Of a stretch of 35,415 nt of DNA, positions 22,140 through 29,476 are shown in pieces. A model generated the notes under the pieces. That model was given only the letters and a program-made list of their open reading frames with translations. It was not told where the DNA came from and made no database searches. The DNA comes from Actinomycetes bacterium (lineage in GTDB: Bacteria > Actinomycetota > Thermoleophilia > Solirubrobacterales > Solirubrobacteraceae), in the NCBI GenBank assembly GCA_021792455.1, contig JAJYUP010000019.1, positions 1-35,415 on the forward strand, in the 5' to 3' direction. Each line of letters starts with the position of its first letter. The stretch's first letter is position 1. Both the position numbers and the translations under genes were made by a program.

Positions 22140-23744
22140 GTGGCGAGGGGCAGTGAGGAAGCGGGGCAGGCAGCGGGACTCGGTGCAGCGCCGCCCGGGG
22201 CGGGGGCGCCCGGGGCGGGGGCGCATGGGCAGGTGGTGCGCAGAGGGCAAGCGGGGTGGAGGCGAGGGGTGAGGTCGGTTGGCGCGCTGCTGCGCAAGGA
22301 CGCGCTGATCCTCGGCCGCTCTCGCGCGACGGCTGTGGTCCTGCTCGTCTACCCAGCTGTGATCGCCGTGCTCATCGGCCTTGCTATCTCCCGCGCGCCA
22401 GGCAAGCCGAGGGTTGCGATCGTCGACCTGACTCCGCCTGGGCAGTCCGTGCAGCTCGGGGGCAGGCGCGTCGGCGTCTCTGAATACGTTGACGCGCTCT
22501 TCAAGCAGGTCGATGCGGTGCAGGTCGCGACGCGCGCTGCCGCCGAGCGCGAGGTCAGCTCAGGAGAAGTGCTTGCGGCGGTCGTGATTCCCGCCGACGT
22601 CGTATCGAAGATCTCATCTGGCGTCAGCCAGGCCCACGTCGCCGTCATCTATGACGGAGACGCGTTGAAGCAGTCGCTCGTGCGAGCGAGCATCGATTCG
22701 GCGCTCGCCGAAGCGAACCTCGCTCTCTCGAGGCAGCTGCGGAGCATCACGCTGCAGGACATCGATCTGCTGCTGAAGGGGGGCGTCTCGGCCGCGATCT
22801 TCGGCGCTCCGAGCAGGCTCGTCGGTCTCGCCGAAATCCCAGCGCAGCTGAGCGCGCTTGCGGTGAGGCAGCGATCGACGGCGGCGGCGCAGGAGCTCCG
22901 GCGCATCGCCTCCTCGACGAGCTACGCGGTGAGGAACCTGCAGCTGAGCAGGGCGGTCCTGAGGACGGTGAGCGAGCCGATCGCGCCGACCAACGTCATC
23001 CTGCATGGCAGGAAGACCCCTCTCGACGCTTATGCCGTCGTCGTCGCGGTGACGATCTCGCTGATGTTCGTCGGGGTGCTGCTCGCCGCGGGCGCGCTTG
23101 CGCTCGAGCGCGAAGAGCACACTCTCACTCGGCTTGCGAGGGGCTCGCGGGCTTCGTGGTGGCCGACGCTCCGGGGACGGTCTGCGCCCCGTCGAGGGTC
23201 TGCGCCCCGTCGAGGGTCTGCGCCCCGTAGAGGGTCTGCGCCCCGTGGAGAGTCTGCGCCCCGTGGAGGGCCGGCGCTCGTCTCGATCGGAGAGCTGATC
23301 TGCGCGAAGGCGCTGCTTGCCGGTGCCTGCGCGTTCCTGCTCGCGCTTGCGATGCTCGCTGTCATCGGCGCGTTCGTGCCGATCAGCTGGGGCAGAGCTG
23401 GGCTCTGGGTGGTCGCGCTCGGCATCGGCGCGCTCGCGTTCGCTGCGCTTGGCCTCGCGATTGGCGCGCTCGTCAGCGAGGTGCGTGCCGCAAGCCTGCT
23501 CGCGTTCCTGGTCTCGCTGCCCCTCGCCTTCCTCGCGCTCGTCCCTGCAGGCGCCCTTGCGAGCGGGATCTACGACGCTCTGAATGCAATCTCCTTTCTG
23601 TTTCCGTACAAGGCGTCGCTGCAGGCCCTCGATGCCGCCGTCAACAGAGCCTCGCCTGCGATCGGCCTGCCGCTCGTTCACCTCGTCGTCCTCTCGGTTG
23701 CCTTCGCGGCCATCGCGCGCGTCGCGCTTGCGCGCGTGCGCTGA
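22140..23744 (+). CDS. ABC-2 type transporter permease
   Basis: A 534-residue permease. After a Gly/Ala-rich start, the first membrane helix (VVLLVYPAVIAVLIGLAI, about 63-80) is followed by a large extracytoplasmic domain (about 85-295). Five to six helices make up the second half, the usual ABC-2 exporter layout. Between the second and third helices a cytoplasmic loop carries five SAPRRG-like hexapeptides coded by an 18-bp tandem repeat. The GTG at 22140 has GGAGG about 12 nt upstream; the first 40 residues include two 15-bp repeats (PGAGA) and may not be conserved. It is downstream of its ATPase and just upstream of hemB, but a link with haem is only positional. Confidence 0.85.
   Translation: MARGSEEAGQAAGLGAAPPGAGAPGAGAHGQVVRRGQAGWRRGVRSVGALLRKDALILGRSRATAVVLLVYPAVIAVLIGLAISRAPGKPRVAIVDLTPPGQSVQLGGRRVGVSEYVDALFKQVDAVQVATRAAAEREVSSGEVLAAVVIPADVVSKISSGVSQAHVAVIYDGDALKQSLVRASIDSALAEANLALSRQLRSITLQDIDLLLKGGVSAAIFGAPSRLVGLAEIPAQLSALAVRQRSTAAAQELRRIASSTSYAVRNLQLSRAVLRTVSEPIAPTNVILHGRKTPLDAYAVVVAVTISLMFVGVLLAAGALALEREEHTLTRLARGSRASWWPTLRGRSAPRRGSAPRRGSAPRRGSAPRGESAPRGGPALVSIGELICAKALLAGACAFLLALAMLAVIGAFVPISWGRAGLWVVALGIGALAFAALGLAIGALVSEVRAASLLAFLVSLPLAFLALVPAGALASGIYDALNAISFLFPYKASLQALDAAVNRASPAIGLPLVHLVVLSVAFAAIARVALARVR
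23178..23267 (+). repeat. In-frame 18-bp tandem repeat in the ABC permease gene (five copies)
   Basis: Units start at 23178, 23196, 23214, 23232 and 23250. Each carries TCTGCGCCCCGT and codes a Ser-Ala-Pro-Arg-Arg/Gly-Gly hexapeptide in a predicted cytoplasmic loop. Copies differ at one to three bases. Confidence 0.92.
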
Positions 23745-23849: not shown

Positions 23850-24851
23850 ATGGCGTTTCCCCAGACGCGCATGCGACGTCTGCGCTCGAGCTCTGCCCTT
23901 CGCGGCCTTCTCCGCGAGACCGAGGTTGCACCCTCGCGGCTGATCATGCCGATGTTCATCAGCGCGGACGGACCATCGCGTGTGCCGATCGAGGCGATGC
24001 CTGGCATCGAGCGGCTGTCGATCGCAGAGGCTGAGGCGGAGGCGCAGGAGCTCTTCGCGCTCGGAGTTCCCGGGCTGCTGCTGTTCGGGGTGCCGTCGCA
24101 GCCCGAGAAGGACGACTGCGGCTCGGCGGCGTGGGATGAGGCGGGCGTCGTGCAGCTCGCGCTGTCAGCGATCAAGCGCGCCGTCCCTCAGATGCTGCTG
24201 ATCACCGACGTCTGCCTGTGCGAGTACACGAGCCATGGGCACTGTGGTGTGCTGAGCGTGACGCCATCAGGCGCGAGGCAGGTCGACAACGACGCCTCCG
24301 TCGAGCTGCTCGCCCGCGTAGCCGTCAGCCACGCGCGGGCGGGCGCGGATGTCGTCGCGCCCTCGGACATGATGGACGGCCGCGTCGCCGCGATCAGGAA
24401 GGCGCTCGACGGGGCAGGGTGCGAGCAGACGCCGATCCTCGCCTACTCGGCGAAGTTCGCCTCCGCCTTCTACGGTCCGTTCAGGGAGGCGGTGGGCTCT
24501 GCGCCTGCGTTCGGGGACCGCCGCGGCTACCAGATGGACCCAGCGAACGGCTGTGAGGCGGTGCGGGAGGCGCTCCTCGACGTCGAGGAGGGGGCGGACA
24601 TGCTGATGGTGAAGCCCGCGCTCGCCTATTGCGATCTGATAGCGGCGGTGAAGCGGGCGACTTCGATGCCGCTCGCCGCCTACAACGTCTCAGGTGAGTA
24701 CGCGATGGTGAAGGCGGCCGCAGCAGCTGGCTGCCTCGACGAGATGGAGACCGCGCTCGAGATCCTCACCTCGCTGCGCAGGGCGGGCGCGGACGTGTTG
24801 ATCACCTACCACGCAAAGGAGGCGGCGCGATGGCTCGCGCAGATCGTCTAG
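23850..24851 (+). CDS. hemB: Delta-aminolevulinic acid dehydratase (porphobilinogen synthase)
   Basis: Condenses two 5-aminolevulinate molecules to porphobilinogen, the first shared ring of all tetrapyrroles. The 333-residue length is standard. The zinc triad is intact: DVCLCEYTSHGHCG gives Cys122, Cys124 and Cys132, so this is a zinc- rather than magnesium-type enzyme. Lys202 in SAKFASAFYGPFR and Lys255 in MLMVKPALAY are the two Schiff-base lysines. RRGYQMDPAN is also typical. The ATG at 23850 gives the common MRRLR N-terminus. It leads a tightly packed run: the next gene starts inside it (22-bp overlap), then hemL overlaps that one. This is the C5-pathway core plus a siroheme decarboxylase. 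Confidence 0.97.
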   Translation: MAFPQTRMRRLRSSSALRGLLRETEVAPSRLIMPMFISADGPSRVPIEAMPGIERLSIAEAEAEAQELFALGVPGLLLFGVPSQPEKDDCGSAAWDEAGVVQLALSAIKRAVPQMLLITDVCLCEYTSHGHCGVLSVTPSGARQVDNDASVELLARVAVSHARAGADVVAPSDMMDGRVAAIRKALDGAGCEQTPILAYSAKFASAFYGPFREAVGSAPAFGDRRGYQMDPANGCEAVREALLDVEEGADMLMVKPALAYCDLIAAVKRATSMPLAAYNVSGEYAMVKAAAAAGCLDEMETALEILTSLRRAGADVLITYHAKEAARWLAQIV

Positions 24852-26029
24852 CGGCCGCGAGGCCTGACACGGCGGCTCCACCGTCTGCGGCGCCGGCCGC
24901 ATCGTCTCTCACGAGTCCCGCAGGGGCTGGCAACGGGGCCGGCAGGCCTGCAACTCCGAAGCTGCGCAGCCGTGAGCATGGCGCGGCGATCCCGCTCGAC
25001 GACGTCGACCGCAGGGTGCTCAACCTCATGCAGGGCAGCTTCCCGATCAGCACGCGGCCCTATGCGCGCGTGGCTGAGCTCGCCCAGCTGCCTGAGCAGG
25101 AGGTGCTCCAGCGGGTGCGGCGGCTGCTCGAGCAGCGGATCATCAGGCAGATAACTCCGATCTTCGACACGCGCGCGCTCGGCTACTCTTCGATGCTCGT
25201 CGCCGCGAAGGTCGATCCCGCCCACCCACACAGAGCTGCGAGTGTCATCAACGCCCATCCTGGCGTATCGCACAACTACCTGCGAAACCACGATTTCAAC
25301 CTCTGGTTCACGATCGCCGTCGAGCCTGACTCCCCGCTTGGTCTCGACGGCACCCTCGAGGTGCTCGCGAAGGAGTCTGGCGCGAGCTCGATGCGGCAGC
25401 TGCCCACCCTCAAGCTGTTCAAGATCAGGATGGATCTCGAGATGGAGGGCGACACGAAGGCGCTCGCCTCAGCGGCGGAGGCGGCCGACCCGATCGAGCT
25501 CGACCCCCAGCCCTACGACGAGTTCGACGTCGCGGTCATCAGGGCACTGCAGGGGGACATGCCAGTGACCGAACAGCCTTACGCTCCGGCGGCGGCAGAG
25601 CTCGCAATCACGCAGGAGCGCCTGCTTGCGCACCTGTCGGGCATGCAGGAGAGGGGCCTGCTCCGGCGCGTAGCGGCGATCCTCTACCACCGCAGGGCGG
25701 GATTCTCGGCGAACGGCATGGGCGTCTGGAAGGTGCCTCCGGACGAGGTCCACGATGTCGGCCGCCAGATGGCGGCCGTCCGCGGGATCTCGCACTGCTA
25801 CCAGCGACCCACCTATGAGGACTGGCCGTACTCGATCTTCACGATGGCCCATGGCCGAAGCAAGCAGGAGTGCGACGCGATCCTCGACTCGATCGCGCAG
25901 CTCACCGGAATTCAGGAGCGGGCGACGCTGTACTCCTCGACGGAGTTCAAGAAGATCAGGCTGCTCTACTTCACCGACGAGTTCAAGCGCTGGGAAGCGG
26001 AGCACGCAGGCGGGCGTGCGCCCAGTTGA
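24830..26029 (+). CDS. ahbAB: Fused siroheme decarboxylase, AhbA-AhbB in one chain (Lrp/AsnC-like fold)
   Basis: A 399-residue protein with two Lrp/AsnC-like modules, each a winged helix plus ferredoxin-like domain. Module A is about 54-205 and module B about 228-385, after a 50-residue disordered start. Automatic annotation would call it a transcription regulator. The stretches GVSHNYLRNHDFNLWFTIAV (145-164) and ISHCYQRPTYEDWPYSIFTM (320-339) are instead signatures of AhbA/AhbB and NirD/NirL, which decarboxylate siroheme to 12,18-didecarboxysiroheme for the alternative haem route or haem d1. FPISTRPYARVAELAQL and VTEQPYAPAAAELAI match the non-DNA-binding helices of those enzymes. Position between hemB and hemL, with overlapping ends, supports the enzyme reading. 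AhbA and AhbB are usually separate chains; here they are fused. AhbC/AhbD are not in the window. Confidence 0.85.
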   Translation: MARADRLAAARPDTAAPPSAAPAASSLTSPAGAGNGAGRPATPKLRSREHGAAIPLDDVDRRVLNLMQGSFPISTRPYARVAELAQLPEQEVLQRVRRLLEQRIIRQITPIFDTRALGYSSMLVAAKVDPAHPHRAASVINAHPGVSHNYLRNHDFNLWFTIAVEPDSPLGLDGTLEVLAKESGASSMRQLPTLKLFKIRMDLEMEGDTKALASAAEAADPIELDPQPYDEFDVAVIRALQGDMPVTEQPYAPAAAELAITQERLLAHLSGMQERGLLRRVAAILYHRRAGFSANGMGVWKVPPDEVHDVGRQMAAVRGISHCYQRPTYEDWPYSIFTMAHGRSKQECDAILDSIAQLTGIQERATLYSSTEFKKIRLLYFTDEFKRWEAEHAGGRAPS

Positions 26030-27330
26030 GCTCGCCAACCGACACGCGCTCCCGCGATCTGCAGGGTCGCGCCGCGCAGCTCATCCCCGGCGGGGTGAAC
26101 TCGCCTGTGCGGGCGATGCGCGCGATCGGCCGCGACCCTCTTTGGATCCGCGCCGGCGATGGCGCTGAGCTCGTCGACGTCGACGGCAACCGCTACGTCG
26201 ACTACGTCTGCTCCTGGGGTCCGCTGATCCATGGGCACGCCCACCCGCGGATCGTCGATGCGGTCTGCGAGGCGGCTCGCAGCGGCATGAGCTTCGGTGC
26301 ACCGACCGAGGGGGAGCTGCTGCTTGCGCAGGAGATCGCGGCACGAATGCAGTCGGTGGAGATGGTGAGGAGCACCTCCTCTGGCACGGAGGCGAGCATG
26401 ACTGCGATCAGGCTGGCGCGGGCGGCGACCGGCAGGCGGGCGATCATCAAGTTCGCTGGCGCCTATCATGGCCACCTCGACAGCCTGCTCGCCGAAGCGG
26501 GCTCTGGCGTCGCGACCGCGGCCGCTGGCCGTTCCGTGCCGGCGAGCCCTGGTGTCACGGAGGGCGCTGCGGAAGACACGATCGTCTCGCCGTGGAATGA
26601 CTCGAGGGCGCTCGAAGAAGCTGCGGAGTGGGCGGCTGAGCGTGGTGGTCTCGCGGCGATCATCGCCGAGCCGCTTCCTGCGAACATGGGCCTCGTGCCG
26701 CCGCAGGACGGGTTCCTCCAGGAGGTCCGGGAGGTTGCGGCGCGCTGCGGCGCGCTGCTCATACTCGACGAGGTGATAAGCGGCTTCAGGGTTGCGCGCG
26801 GCGGCGCACAGCAGCTGCTCGGCGTCAGCGCCGACCTCACGATCATGGGCAAGGTGATCGGGGGCGGGCTGCCTGCCGGAGCGGTCGGCGGGCCTGCCGA
26901 GCTGATGGGGATGCTCGCCCCTGAGGGTGAGGTCTACCATGCGGGCACTCTCTCCGGCAACCCGCTCGCGGTCGCCGCCGGGCTCGCGAGCCTCTCCATG
27001 CTCGACGAGGACGCCTACATGCGCCTTGCAGCGACTACTGAGAAGCTCGCGAATCTGCTCGCCGCAGCTGCAGGCGACCGCCCTGTGCAGGTCGTCTCGT
27101 GCCCAGGTCTGCTCACTGTCTTCTTCAGCGAGCGGCCGGTCAGGAGCTTCGCCGACGCGAAGGCATGTGACCTCGATGCGTATGGCAGATGGTGCAGGGG
27201 CCTGCTTTCCCGCGGCGTATATCCGCCCCCGTCGCAGTTCGAGGCGTGGTTTCCCTCCCTCGCCCATCAGCAGGAGCAGCTCGAGCGCACCGCCTCCGCC
27301 GCTGAGGAGTCCTTCAGGGAGCTCGAGTGA
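26026..27330 (+). CDS. hemL: Glutamate-1-semialdehyde 2,1-aminomutase
   Basis: Converts glutamate-1-semialdehyde to 5-aminolevulinate in the C5 pathway, supplying HemB. The 434-residue length fits the family of about 430. LIPGGVNSPVRAM is the standard N-terminus. CSWGPLIHGHAHP, VRSTSSGTEASMTAIRLAR, FAGAYHGHLDSLL and ILDEVISGFR are family landmarks. MGKVIGGGLPAGAVGG contains the PLP lysine, Lys276. I chose the TTG at 26026, which overlaps the TGA of the preceding gene and gives exactly the family's length; the open frame upstream of it is antisense-free but lies inside ahbAB in another frame. The stop overlaps the GTG of the next gene. Confidence 0.95.
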   Translation: MSSPTDTRSRDLQGRAAQLIPGGVNSPVRAMRAIGRDPLWIRAGDGAELVDVDGNRYVDYVCSWGPLIHGHAHPRIVDAVCEAARSGMSFGAPTEGELLLAQEIAARMQSVEMVRSTSSGTEASMTAIRLARAATGRRAIIKFAGAYHGHLDSLLAEAGSGVATAAAGRSVPASPGVTEGAAEDTIVSPWNDSRALEEAAEWAAERGGLAAIIAEPLPANMGLVPPQDGFLQEVREVAARCGALLILDEVISGFRVARGGAQQLLGVSADLTIMGKVIGGGLPAGAVGGPAELMGMLAPEGEVYHAGTLSGNPLAVAAGLASLSMLDEDAYMRLAATTEKLANLLAAAAGDRPVQVVSCPGLLTVFFSERPVRSFADAKACDLDAYGRWCRGLLSRGVYPPPSQFEAWFPSLAHQQEQLERTASAAEESFRELE

Positions 27331-27920
27331 GCGGCGGTGAAGCGCTTCAGCGGCTTCGGCGGCTGCTGCTCGAGCAGGGCGGTGTGATCGGCGGTCTGAT
27401 CGAGGTCCGCCCTGGCGCCTCGACCGGCAGCGTCGGTCCGGCGCGGATCGGGGATCCCGCGCAGATCAAGGATCCCGCGCAGATCAAGGATCCCGCGCAG
27501 ATCGGGGATCCGGCGCAGCGCGCCTGCCGAGGGCCGCGAGCCTCCGCTCACCCCGCAGAGTATGAGCTGCTCGTCGAGGCGATCTACGAGGGTTACCTGC
27601 TGCACTACGGCGTCCCACGGCTGCTGCGGCCCGTCGAGCCGGATCTTGCGCTGCTCGCCGGCGATCAGCTGTATGCGCTTGGGCTTGCGAGGCTCGTACG
27701 CCTCGGCGACATCCACGCCGTCGCTCAGCTTGCGGATGTCATCTCTCTCTGCGCCCTCGCGCACGGGTCGGGCGAACCTGAGCTCGCATACGCGGTCTGG
27801 GATGCAGGCGCTCGGGCGGTCGGCTGGGGCGGCACGGGCCGGCATGAGCGTGCGAAGAGGCTCGCGAGGGTCCGCGCGCCGTCGGCACTCGCGGCGATGC
27901 GCGAGGCGGCTGAGCTCTAG
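27327..27920 (+). CDS. Unknown protein co-transcribed with hemL, with hexapeptide repeat
   Basis: A 197-residue protein I cannot assign. The GTG start overlaps the hemL stop codon (GTGA), so translation is probably coupled. Residues about 40-65 are an in-frame DPAQIK hexapeptide repeat. The rest is helical: YELLVEAIYEGYLLHYG, then LALLAGDQLYALGLARLVRLGDIHAVAQLADVI, then a Gly/Ala/Arg-rich tail. LLAGDQLYALGLARL has a faint likeness to the AGDLLFSRAFAEL helix of polyprenyl synthases, such as the one 4 kb downstream, but no DDxxD motif is present. No signal peptide or membrane helix. It sits between haem-precursor genes and the bc-complex genes, so a role in haem handling or respiratory assembly is possible but only inferred. 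Confidence 0.75.
   Translation: MSGGEALQRLRRLLLEQGGVIGGLIEVRPGASTGSVGPARIGDPAQIKDPAQIKDPAQIGDPAQRACRGPRASAHPAEYELLVEAIYEGYLLHYGVPRLLRPVEPDLALLAGDQLYALGLARLVRLGDIHAVAQLADVISLCALAHGSGEPELAYAVWDAGARAVGWGGTGRHERAKRLARVRAPSALAAMREAAEL
27452..27520 (+). repeat. In-frame 18-bp tandem repeat in the gene after hemL (3.8 copies)
   Basis: Units start at 27452, 27470 and 27488, with a partial fourth at 27506. The first two are identical; each contains GGATCCCGCGCAGATC and codes Asp-Pro-Ala-Gln-Ile-Lys/Gly. A decayed half unit precedes them at about 27439. Confidence 0.93.
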
Positions 27921-27965: not shown

Positions 27966-27971
27966 TATTGT
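27966..27971 (+). promoter_or_regulatory. -10 element of qcrA (leaderless type)
   Basis: TATTGT followed by 8 nt and the ATG at 27980, with no Shine-Dalgarno. A TTG overlapping it (27968) is less likely to be the start. Confidence 0.5.
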
Positions 27972-27979
27972 TCCCGGCC

Positions 27980-28642
27980 ATGCCTGACAAGCACGAATCT
28001 CGCAAGTCGAAGTACACGGCCGATCGTCTGATTCCTGGGGCATTCGAGGGCGAGACAGTCACCCGCCGCCGCTTCATGACGGGCACCGTCCACGCTGCGG
28101 GCGCGATCGCCGCAGCATCGTTCACGCTGCCCGCGCTTGGGTTCGCGATTGGGCCGATCTTCAAGGAGTTCCCGCACCACTGGGAGACCGCTGGGCCGAC
28201 TGACATGTTCCCGAACGACAACTACGTGCCTGTCACGATCGAAATCGAGCCTGGCGAAGGCGAGATCGGCAACACGACCGTCTACGTCCGCCAGAAAAAT
28301 CCGAAGATCGACACCGATCCCTACGACCGCAACACGGCCTACATCGCGATCACGAGCCGCTGCTCCCACCTCGGCTGCCCTGTGCGGTGGATCGATGCGG
28401 CGAAGCGGTTCATCTGTCCCTGCCACGGCAGCGTGTTCGACTTTCTTGGCCTTCGCGTCACGGGCCCGGCGGTGCGACCGCTCGACCGCTTCTTCACGCG
28501 GGTTGAGAAAGGCCTCGTGCAGATCGGGCCTCGGTTCAGCGTCAACTCGCACCTGCGCCGCTTCTCTCCGCGAGACCCAGGGGAGCCGCTCGACGGCATT
28601 GGCCAGTATCTGTACCCGTCGCGCCCGTCCGCGCGGATCTGA
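27980..28642 (+). CDS. qcrA: Rieske iron-sulfur subunit of menaquinol:cytochrome c reductase
   Basis: A 220-residue Rieske protein that takes an electron from menaquinol and passes it to cytochrome c. Residues 28-33 read TRRRFM, a twin-arginine motif, followed by a hydrophobic anchor (AAGAIAAASFTLPALGFAI), so it is exported folded by the Tat system; tatC is about 5 kb downstream. The [2Fe-2S] site is complete: CSHLGC gives Cys128 and His130, CPCHGS gives Cys146 and His149, and Cys133-Cys148 form the expected disulfide. The ATG at 27980 has a -10 8 nt upstream. The order qcrA-qcrB-qcrC matches Bacillus rather than the qcrCAB of classical actinobacteria. Confidence 0.94.
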   Translation: MPDKHESRKSKYTADRLIPGAFEGETVTRRRFMTGTVHAAGAIAAASFTLPALGFAIGPIFKEFPHHWETAGPTDMFPNDNYVPVTIEIEPGEGEIGNTTVYVRQKNPKIDTDPYDRNTAYIAITSRCSHLGCPVRWIDAAKRFICPCHGSVFDFLGLRVTGPAVRPLDRFFTRVEKGLVQIGPRFSVNSHLRRFSPRDPGEPLDGIGQYLYPSRPSARI

Positions 28643-28672: not shown

Positions 28673-29476
28673 ATGCCGAAGCTGCCAGCGCCGCCGATCC
28701 CATCGCTTCTGAAGTCACCGCCGCCGCGCCCTGGCGAGAGCAACGGGGCGGTGACGCCCGCAGAGGAGGCGATGGAGGCGGGCGTCTCGGTCGTCGACTG
28801 GATCGACGAGCGGACGTCCCTGTCAGGTGCGGCGCGGTGGATGATGTTCAGGAAGGTGCCGAAGGGCACGAACTGGTTCTACACGCTTGGGTCGGCGACG
28901 ATGTTCGCGTTCCTCAACCAGGCTGTCACCGGCGTTTTCCTCGCGATGTACTACAGGCCGGAAGCGAACGGCGGGGCCTACGAATCGGTCAGGCACATCA
29001 CGAACGAAGTGTTTCTCGGAGCACTCGTGCGCGGGATGCACAAGTGGGGCGCGAGCGTGATGGTCGCGCTCGTGTTCCTGCACATGGCGAGGACGTTCTT
29101 CTTCGGCGCCTACAAGTACCCGCGGGAGCTCAACTGGGTGATAGGGGTTGCGCTGCTCATCCTCACGATGGTGATGGGCTTCACCGGCTATCTGCTGCCG
29201 TTCGACGAGCGGGCCTACTGGGCGACGATCGTCGGCGTCAACATCAACGGCACCGGCCCGCTGATCGGTCCTTACCTCAGCGACTTCCTCAGGGCTGGGC
29301 CTGAAATCAGCGCGGCGACGCTCACCAGGTTCTACGCGATCCACATGATGATCGTGCCGGGACTGATCGCCGCTCTGATAGGCGCGCATCTCTACCTCGT
29401 TGCGAAGCTCGGAACGACCGCCCCACCGTGGATCAAAGCCGAGAAGAAGGCGCAGCTGCGCAGGAGCGAGGCGTAG
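28673..29476 (+). CDS. qcrB: Cytochrome b6-type subunit of menaquinol:cytochrome c reductase
   Basis: A 267-residue cytochrome b N-terminal-half protein with four membrane helices. Haem ligands are visible as pairs: His123 and His137 in the second helix (GMHKWGASVM to FLHMARTFF), and His224 and His239 in the fourth (AIHMMIVPG to GAHLYLV). Thirteen residues lie between the first pair and fourteen between the second; that unequal spacing marks the b6 type. GFTGYLLPFDERAYWA follows the third helix at the quinol-oxidation side. The first 60 residues are a soluble extension. No ribosome site is obvious, but the gene lies 30 bp after qcrA and 6 bp before qcrC, so it belongs to the same operon. Confidence 0.94.
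   Translation: MPKLPAPPIPSLLKSPPPRPGESNGAVTPAEEAMEAGVSVVDWIDERTSLSGAARWMMFRKVPKGTNWFYTLGSATMFAFLNQAVTGVFLAMYYRPEANGGAYESVRHITNEVFLGALVRGMHKWGASVMVALVFLHMARTFFFGAYKYPRELNWVIGVALLILTMVMGFTGYLLPFDERAYWATIVGVNINGTGPLIGPYLSDFLRAGPEISAATLTRFYAIHMMIVPGLIAALIGAHLYLVAKLGTTAPPWIKAEKKAQLRRSEA

What the first reader, a model, noticed from the sequence alone, without database searches (positions are those of the whole stretch)
24830..26029. Fused AhbA-AhbB siroheme decarboxylase hidden as an 'Lrp/AsnC regulator' between hemB and hemL
The protein has two Lrp-like modules with the AhbA/NirD-type GVSHNYLR and AhbB/NirL-type SHCYQRPTYEDWPY signatures. It sits, with overlapping reading frames, inside a C5-pathway operon. 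Established knowledge: Ahb enzymes serve the siroheme-dependent haem route of archaea and sulfate reducers, whereas classical actinobacteria use the coproporphyrin route. A single-chain fusion in a high-GC actinobacterium-like genome suggests an alternative haem (or haem d1) pathway feeding the adjacent bc complex.
Basis: partly seen in the sequence, partly recalled or inferred. Interest (0 to 1): 0.78.

Follow-up and report, generated by a model that had tools for sequence, protein, structure and literature searches.

The report
Fused siroheme decarboxylase, heme operon
A gene that looks like a regulator is a two-in-one enzyme for an ancient, archaea-like way of making heme; most sampled bacteria of this order seem to rely on it, and one later step of that route has no known enzyme in them.

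Summary
ORF 24830-26029 (399 aa) is a single-chain AhbA-AhbB siroheme decarboxylase: both halves pass NCBIfam's equivalog cut-offs, it aligns almost end to end with solved fused NirDL (4CH7), and both HXYXR motifs are intact. It sits between hemB and hemL in a Solirubrobacterales MAG.

The fusion is known (archaea, Hydrogenobacter); the pathway context is the finding. In a hand-picked panel of 56 genomes of the order, hemE and hemH/cpfC were found in the same 8 only, fused AhbAB in 49, ChdC in 52, SUMT in 55. All 52 ChdC genomes carry AhbAB or HemE. In 7 of 11 AhbAB-negative genomes hemB runs straight into hemL; in 4 hemB was not found. Four losses, on separate branches of a rough tree, are in hemE-cpfC genomes.

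So AhbAB probably supplies heme through siroheme, finished by ChdC. Strong AhbC-like genes were found in 3 of 56, leaving deacetylation unassigned in 42 AhbAB genomes without HemE.

This MAG is one of 4 with both routes. No convincing cytochrome cd1 was seen, so heme d1 is unlikely. No activity is shown.

The parts
23850..24851 (+). hemB, porphobilinogen synthase
   Evidence: Pfam ALAD 468 bits; NCBIfam NF006762 475 bits, cut-off 297
24816..24822 (+). AAGGAGG, likely ribosome-binding site of ahbAB inside the hemB 3' end
   Evidence: sequence read; inference
24830..26029 (+). ahbAB: fused siroheme decarboxylase (AhbA-like and AhbB-like modules on one chain)
   Evidence: NCBIfam AhbA and AhbB equivalogs; match to 4CH7/4CZC over nearly the whole chain
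25007..25444 (+). AhbA-like module (residues 60-205)
   Evidence: NF040708, 251 bits, cut-off 140
25271..25285 (+). HXYXR motif of the AhbA half (H148-N-Y-L-R152; H148 = AhbA His115, the iron ligand named in PMC4145669)
25535..25969 (+). AhbB-like module (residues 236-380)
   Evidence: NF040707, 239 bits, cut-off 125
25793..25807 (+). HXYXR motif of the AhbB half (H322-C-Y324-Q-R326 = AhbB His98/Tyr100/Arg102)
25952..25954 (+). K375, equivalent of AhbB Lys152
26026..27330 (+). hemL, glutamate-1-semialdehyde 2,1-aminomutase (the longest ORF starts at 25870; TTG 26026 is the likelier start)
   Evidence: TIGR00713 531 bits, cut-off 527 (scanned from 25870); start, inference
27327..27920 (+). conserved small ORF without a Pfam match between hemL and the Rieske gene; operon neighbour
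   Evidence: tblastn hit in 88 of 101 loci; no Pfam match
27968..28642 (+). Rieske iron-sulfur protein
   Evidence: Pfam PF00355; conserved neighbour
28673..29476 (+). cytochrome b N-terminal subunit
   Evidence: Pfam PF00033
29483..30217 (+). cytochrome b C-terminal domain fused to a cytochrome c domain
   Evidence: Pfam PF00032 and PF13442

Best explanation
The gene encodes a one-chain siroheme decarboxylase: two Lrp-like modules that together form one heme-type pocket. By homology it removes the C12 and C18 acetate carboxyls of siroheme and yields 12,18-didecarboxysiroheme. In Solirubrobacterales this is probably the main entry to heme b: uroporphyrinogen III, then SUMT and SirC to siroheme, then AhbAB, then an unassigned deacetylation to coproheme, then ChdC. 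A few genomes have an AhbC-like and AhbD-like pair for the later steps. Lineages that carry hemE-cpfC can lose ahbAB. The genome of this window is one of four in the panel with both routes. Shown here: the family, the intact catalytic residues, the operon, and the gene-presence pattern. Inferred: substrate, direction and flux. Unknown: the enzyme that replaces AhbC, and the iron chelatase, which was not searched for.
For: Family and fold: (best structures 4CH7/4CZC, Foldseek E 3e-28, from a model of mean pLDDT 73). Catalytic residues kept in 93-94 of 94 rows. Gene order hemB-ahbAB-hemL-Rieske-cytochrome b recurs in most of 20 relative stretches. Panel of 56 genomes: hemE 8 of 56; hemH the same 8; chdC 52 of 56; SUMT 55 of 56; AhbAB 49 of 56. 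All 52 chdC-positive genomes have AhbAB or HemE; the 3 genomes with neither also lack chdC. AhbAB absence against HemE presence: Fisher p = 0.0055 over 56 genomes, 2.6e-4 over the 52 with chdC (relatedness not corrected). In 7 of the 11 AhbAB-less genomes hemB runs into hemL with ahbAB missing. On a rough tree without support values G009, G014, G031/G058 and G096 fall on separate branches. Three HemE-less genomes carry an AhbC-like and an AhbD-like gene. In the three other genomes with both routes (G004, G011, G034) AhbAB is more similar to the window's protein than HemB or HemL is.
Against: No strong AhbC-like match in 53 of 56 genomes, so the siroheme route as known is incomplete in nearly all of them, this MAG included. 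This MAG has hemE, cpfC, cgoX and chdC, so here AhbAB is not needed in principle. SUMT and SirC also serve siroheme and cobalamin (recalled), so their presence does not discriminate. A sirohydrochlorin ferrochelatase was not searched for. SirC was seen only as a neighbour of SUMT in 13 of 20 loci (one member identified), and not in this MAG, whose SUMT contig is only 5.9 kb. The window's ChdC is below NCBIfam's HemQ cut-off (122 against 235 bits). The panel was hand-picked. The general AsnC-type HTH family also matches. No enzyme activity is shown.
Confidence: 0.7

Rival explanations
1. Iron-first uroporphyrin route: AhbAB decarboxylates all four acetates of iron-uroporphyrin III, giving coproheme directly, and ChdC finishes. 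No AhbC, HemE or HemH would be needed.
For: It explains why AhbC, HemE and HemH are missing together in 41 ChdC-positive genomes with AhbAB. The closest solved relative was crystallised with an iron-uroporphyrin III analogue (4CZC title; the paper itself was not read).
Against: No report of such activity was seen (12 of 17 rows listed; passages of PMC3942049 and PMC4145669). It needs an iron chelatase for uroporphyrin. The active-site residues look ordinary. Three HemE-less relatives do carry an AhbC-like gene.
Confidence: 0.12
2. In this genome the coproporphyrin route (HemE-CgoX-CpfC-ChdC) makes all heme, and AhbAB is a leftover or makes didecarboxysiroheme for an unknown use.
For: Complete cassette present; no AhbC found; hemE-carrying relatives have lost ahbAB on separate branches.
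Against: The gene is intact and its identity to relatives is not lower than that of HemB or HemL. It is still in its operon with a likely ribosome-binding site. The MAG is only 83% complete, so AhbC could be missed.
Confidence: 0.25
3. A DNA-binding, tetrapyrrole-sensing Lrp/AsnC regulator of the hem operon.
For: HTH modules present, and the general Pfam HTH_AsnC-type family passes its cut-off (37.6 against 27 bits). PMC4145669 notes that a NirL homologue was reported to bind DNA and that dual function is not excluded.
Against: NCBIfam Lrp models score far below cut-off while AhbA and AhbB models pass. The catalytic HXYXR motifs are invariant apart from one divergent second copy. Its loss goes with HemE presence while hemB and hemL stay.
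Confidence: 0.05
4. A NirDL-type enzyme for heme d1 and cytochrome cd1 nitrite reductase.
For: Nearest solved relative is Hydrogenobacter NirDL. Five of 56 genomes have a cytochrome d1 family score over the Pfam cut-off.
Against: No such hit in this genome; elsewhere the hits are weak (single pieces up to 31.7 bits, summed up to 51.3) and in only 9 of 56, whereas AhbAB is in 49 of 56. The gene sits in a hem operon.
Confidence: 0.02

Closest known systems
NirDL of Hydrogenobacter thermophilus (4CH7, 4CZC)
   Same: Single chain with two modules; aligns over query residues 62-391 (277 bits); the same SHNYxR and SHCYQR motifs
   Different: The known one serves heme d1 (recalled); here the gene is in a hem operon and no convincing nirS was seen
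AhbA/AhbB of Desulfovibrio desulfuricans (4CZD, 4UN1)
   Same: Each half matches its counterpart; all six pocket residues compared are conserved
   Different: Two separate subunits there, one chain here; D. desulfuricans is a sulfate reducer using the anaerobic Ahb route (recalled)
Fused ahb-nirDH genes of archaea (PMC3004389, passage seen)
   Same: The same gene fusion in a heme route
   Different: Archaea; here an actinobacterial order, mostly without a detectable AhbC
Haloferax volcanii mixed route (Ahb enzymes plus ChdC/PitA; PMC5746218, PMC8305020, passages seen)
   Same: Ahb genes together with ChdC; CpfC and PgoX reported absent
   Different: Haloferax has AhbC and AhbD; most Solirubrobacterales genomes searched show neither
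Coproporphyrin-dependent route of Gram-positive bacteria (PMC10991733, passages and part 1 of section 3 seen)
   Same: ChdC at the end; the full cassette is also present in this MAG
   Different: 48 of 56 genomes of the order show neither its HemE nor its ferrochelatase CpfC

Membership tests
Siroheme decarboxylase AhbA/AhbB (NirDL type) | Both subunit profiles matched above curated cut-off | tested here: met
   251.0/140 and 238.6/125 bits
Siroheme decarboxylase AhbA/AhbB (NirDL type) | HXYXR motif in both halves and the named pocket residues | tested here: met
   93-94 of 94 rows; the one deviating row is L040, a second copy in another genome
Siroheme decarboxylase AhbA/AhbB (NirDL type) | Fold of two HTH-RAM modules in one pocket | tested here: met
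   Foldseek best hits 4CH7 and 4CZC, TM-score 0.79 by target length, 0.62-0.63 by query; model only moderately confident
Siroheme decarboxylase AhbA/AhbB (NirDL type) | Conversion of siroheme to didecarboxysiroheme | not testable with these tools
   needs purified protein
Siroheme-dependent heme pathway (AhbABCD) | AhbC (didecarboxysiroheme deacetylase) present | tested here: not met
   No strong match in this genome (83% complete) or in 53 of 56 genomes. Strong AhbC-like matches (449-473 bits, below the 650 cut-off, NirJ1 model a close second) in 3. Weaker matches (82-168 bits) in 11 other genomes: in 6 they are the TIGR04053 genes, this MAG also has its MftC, and 5 (82-98 bits) were not identified. 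Control set: 6 of 14 rang, 1 over cut-off
Siroheme-dependent heme pathway (AhbABCD) | AhbD (heme b synthase) present | tested here: inconclusive
   TIGR04053 radical SAM gene on C6 scores 339 on the AhbD model (cut-off 500) and 439 on TIGR04053 (cut-off 395); TIGR04053 in 9 of 56 genomes, 8 over cut-off
Siroheme-dependent heme pathway (AhbABCD) | Siroheme supply (SUMT, SirC, ferrochelatase) | tested here: inconclusive
   SUMT in 55 of 56; SirC cluster beside SUMT in 13 of 20 loci; the ferrochelatase was not searched for
Coproporphyrin-dependent pathway | HemE, CgoX, CpfC, ChdC all present | tested here: met
   Met in this MAG; not met in 48 of 56 genomes, where HemE and CpfC were not found
Heme d1 (nir) pathway | Cytochrome cd1 (NirS) present | tested here: not met
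   No hit in this genome; weak hits in 9 of 56, 5 over the Pfam cut-off
Lrp/AsnC transcription regulators | Best match to a DNA-binding Lrp model | tested here: not met
   Best NCBIfam regulator model 39.3 bits, cut-off 180; the general Pfam HTH_AsnC-type does pass (37.6/27) but is outscored by the NirDL-like HTH (100.1)

The most novel reading that the evidence does not exclude
A mixed heme route without AhbC, HemE or the HemH-type ferrochelatase: AhbAB at the front, ChdC at the end, and between them either an undiscovered oxygen-tolerant didecarboxysiroheme deacetylase or an AhbAB that strips all four acetates from iron-uroporphyrin. It would be the main heme route of Solirubrobacterales, repeatedly displaced where a hemE-cpfC cassette is present.
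Probability: 0.5. Interest if true: 0.85.

Novelty: new variant of a known kind. Interest (0 to 1): 0.62.

Why it matters
Reviews of which I saw passages assign Gram-positive bacteria to the coproporphyrin route and the siroheme route to archaea and sulfate reducers (PMC10991733, PMC7242693). An actinobacterial order in which HemE and the ferrochelatase are mostly not found, while a siroheme decarboxylase and ChdC nearly always are, does not fit that division. It turns a vague annotation, 'Lrp/AsnC regulator', into a testable enzyme. It also exposes a missing step, the AhbC replacement, that can be hunted for in cultured soil bacteria.

Tried and rejected
Heme d1 reading: disfavoured. Lrp regulator: rejected as the main function. 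AhbC replacement candidates were looked for near chdC and near SUMT: a cluster found in 7 of 20 chdC loci has one member identified as an FprA-type NADPH-ferredoxin reductase, and a cluster in 4 of 20 SUMT loci has one member identified as an MpaB/Lcp-type oxygenase; both are weak leads and I claim neither. The ORF at 27327-27920 was considered as a candidate. Its conserved LLAGD..YA.GL pattern reminds me of prenyl synthase subunits (recalled, not tested), its neighbours include a UbiE-type methyltransferase and a polyprenyl synthetase, and it is kept in all 7 genomes where ahbAB is seen to be lost, so I set it aside. YmdB, ABC transporter and phosphodiesterase neighbours look unrelated. Rfam and tRNA scans of the window gave nothing. 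A plasmid search found 26 records, the 15 listed being 32-38% identical. No tree of HemE, CpfC or TIGR04053 was made.

Limits of the counts: the 56-genome panel was my choice from the 101 (own, 48 AhbAB-positive, 7 of the 11 AhbAB-negative; G058, G091, G095, G100 left out). hemE was counted at E <= 1e-30, hemH at 1e-10, AhbC at 1e-20, TIGR04053 at 1e-40, SUMT at 1e-20. In the alignment, 8 of 101 loci gave no usable ORF and were dropped; the window counts twice (as a locus and as P0001), and some genomes occur both as a G stretch and as a named contig. The tree covers 35 genomes and prints no support; G003, G004 and G011 rest on 2 of 6 genes, G096 on 3. G011 is labelled same genus but falls elsewhere on the tree. 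Of the 11 AhbAB-negative genomes, hemB was not found in G045, G088, G091 and G095, so their absence is not confirmed by synteny; in G023 hemB is split over two contigs, the 3' part being followed by hemL; in G096 the Rieske gene lies 5 kb away. Gene calls come from my own GC-based or similarity-based scripts and are wrong in places: they missed the ahbAB cluster in L041, L046, L047 and L029, L034, and missed chdC in L184-L186.
Full report
What is there. The ORF at 24830-26029 encodes a 399-residue protein. Residues 60-205 match NCBIfam's AhbA equivalog and residues 236-380 its AhbB equivalog, each at nearly twice the curated cut-off; NCBIfam's Lrp regulator models stay far below theirs. Pfam's NirDL-like HTH scores 100 bits; the general AsnC-type HTH also passes, at 37.6 against 27. 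A sequence search of solved structures gives the fused Hydrogenobacter enzyme NirDL (4CH7) over residues 62-391 at 277 bits, then AhbA and AhbB of Desulfovibrio for the two halves. A predicted structure of moderate confidence (mean pLDDT 73) has 4CH7 and 4CZC as its best Foldseek matches. The pocket residues named by Palmer et al. (PMC4145669, passages) are all present: H148, R152, H322, Y324, R326 and K375, each kept in 93 or 94 of 94 aligned rows. The one deviating row is a second, 34% identical copy in genome G039. So the family call is firm, while activity is not tested.

The fusion is not new. PMC3004389 (passage) states that almost all archaea with these genes, apart from methanogens, have the fused form, and PMC4145669 repeats it. 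PMC4835899 (passages) notes the single-chain Hydrogenobacter structure.

The operon. hemB, ahbAB and hemL overlap: the ahbAB start lies 22 nt inside hemB behind AAGGAGG, and a TTG start for hemL would overlap the ahbAB stop. A small conserved ORF, a Rieske protein and a split cytochrome b follow. The same order recurs in most of the 20 relative stretches from 19 genomes; my scripts missed the gene in a few, and L040 is the second copy of G039 without this neighbourhood. The host is a Solirubrobacterales MAG: the 80 kept hits (of 175) of a named-genome scan are mostly titled Solirubrobacterales, Solirubrobacteraceae or Thermoleophilaceae, and include Conexibacter, Solirubrobacter and Paraconexibacter strains.

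What else the genome holds. Contig C6 carries cgoX (hemY-like), cpfC (hemH) and hemE in one run, with a divergent radical SAM gene of family TIGR04053 whose next best model is AhbD. chdC is on C238, though below NCBIfam's HemQ cut-off. A SUMT gene in a 578-residue frame is on C48; that this is a SUMT-HemD fusion was read by Pfam in a relative. The other radical SAM matches were identified as mycofactocin, MoaA, sulfatase-maturase and HpnH types, one staying unnamed. No AhbC was seen, in a genome 83% complete. So this organism has a full coproporphyrin route and a siroheme decarboxylase.

The order as a whole is different. I chose 56 of the 101 genomes (own and 100 relatives) searched. Fused AhbAB is in 49 of 56, SUMT in 55 and ChdC in 52. 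But hemE was found in only 8 and hemH/cpfC in the same 8; in the named control genomes hemE rang in 6 of 14 and hemH in 8 of 14. AhbC-like genes above 440 bits are in 3 (best family AhbC with NirJ1 close behind, both below cut-off), each with a TIGR04053 gene and without hemE. Eleven more genomes have weaker AhbC-model matches (82-168 bits): six are the TIGR04053 genes, five were not identified. TIGR04053 is in 9, 8 over cut-off. The cross table: 41 genomes have AhbAB and ChdC, with neither HemE nor AhbC nor TIGR04053; 4 have AhbAB, HemE, ChdC and TIGR04053 (this MAG among them); 4 have HemE and ChdC without AhbAB; 3 have AhbAB, AhbC, TIGR04053 and ChdC; 1 has AhbAB without ChdC; 3 have none of these. 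Every ChdC genome thus has AhbAB or HemE.

The either-or pattern is a real gene loss where it could be checked. In G009, G014, G031, G058, G096, G100 and G023, 7 of the 11 AhbAB-negative genomes, hemB runs into hemL with ahbAB missing and most neighbours in place. In the other four hemB itself was not found. On a tree of 35 genomes from six neighbouring proteins, G009, G014, G031 with G058, and G096 fall on separate branches, each with AhbAB-positive relatives nearby; no support values were printed. HemE was not tested in G058 and G100. The association of AhbAB absence with HemE has Fisher p = 0.0055 (all 56) or 2.6e-4 (the 52 with ChdC), without correction for relatedness. In the three other genomes with both routes AhbAB is more similar to the window's protein than HemB or HemL is, which speaks against decay.

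Reading. HemE and AhbAB look like interchangeable ways to reach coproheme, the substrate of ChdC. Haloarchaea provide a precedent for Ahb genes together with ChdC (PMC5746218 and PMC8305020, passages), but they have AhbC; a metagenome paper also draws HemQ as a possible last step of the siroheme route (PMC8587615, passages). Here AhbC is mostly missing, so either an unknown enzyme removes the two ring A/B acetates, or AhbAB itself acts on iron-uroporphyrin. The second idea rests on the title of 4CZC and on chemistry, and I give it 0.12. A second gene run, seen in relatives, joins a sirC-type gene, moaC, ccm-type genes, hemA, hemC and SUMT-hemD. It fits a siroheme supply but is not specific, because siroheme and cobalamin need it too (recalled). 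TIGR04053 beside hemE-cpfC fits the statement in PMC10548856 that ahbD is found with hemY/hemH/hemQ or with ahbABC.

Heme d1 is disfavoured: the cytochrome d1 family has no match in this genome and weak ones in 9 of 56, five over the Pfam cut-off of 25.5 bits with at most 51.3 bits summed over a frame. I take these for other beta-propellers but did not test that.

Print. Searches of the open library (only the listed top rows seen, 7 to 20 each) showed no paper on siroheme decarboxylase or HemE-less heme synthesis in Solirubrobacterales or Thermoleophilia; every listed row has zero occurrences of the taxon names. The Dailey 2017 review was not held, so this is not proof of novelty. Mixed pathways are reported for Chloroflexota (PMC10991733 citing Kim et al. 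2021).

Verdict. The larger result, an order that mostly lacks detectable HemE and ferrochelatase but keeps AhbAB and ChdC with a missing middle step, is the part worth following.

Noticed in passing
control genomes: Among the 14 named controls, Deinobacterium chartae rings for ChdC, SUMT and the NirDL-like HTH family but not for hemE, hemH or AhbC; the same gap may exist in Deinococcota. The HTH family also rings in Corynebacterium glutamicum, so it is not specific.
   Followed up: no
L012:5146-6954 (own genome, contig C180): One ORF carries both the mycofactocin chaperone MftB (residues 44-126) and the radical SAM enzyme MftC (201-537), an apparent MftB-MftC fusion in a mycofactocin operon.
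   Followed up: no
L040 (genome G039, second copy): A second fused AhbAB-like protein, 34% identical, lacks the equivalents of AhbA-half Tyr150, AhbB-half His322 and Tyr324, and Lys375; it may be a non-decarboxylating paralogue.
   Followed up: partly
window 27327-27920: Conserved ORF of about 200 residues between hemL and the Rieske gene, hit in 88 of 101 loci, no Pfam family; also kept where ahbAB is lost.
   Followed up: partly
L177, L180, L182 (chdC loci): chdC is followed on the same strand by a gene of a cluster whose member in L180 is an FprA-type NADPH-ferredoxin reductase; 7 of 20 chdC loci carry the cluster.
   Followed up: partly
L196:1055-1861, and L199, L203: A gene of a cluster whose L196 member is MpaB/Lcp-type oxygenase lies next to the sirC-type gene; the cluster is in 4 of 20 SUMT loci. 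A weak lead for an oxygen-using tetrapyrrole step.
   Followed up: no
L079, L139, L118 (named contigs): Records titled Bifidobacterium breve (two MAGs) and Chlamydiae carry AhbAB 69-76% identical to the window's; the titles are probably wrong and the contigs Solirubrobacterales.
   Followed up: no
window 22140-23744: The ABC-2 permease upstream of hemB has a run of near-identical RRGSAP-type repeats inside the protein; several relatives have a similar permease and ATPase pair just upstream of hemB.
   Followed up: no
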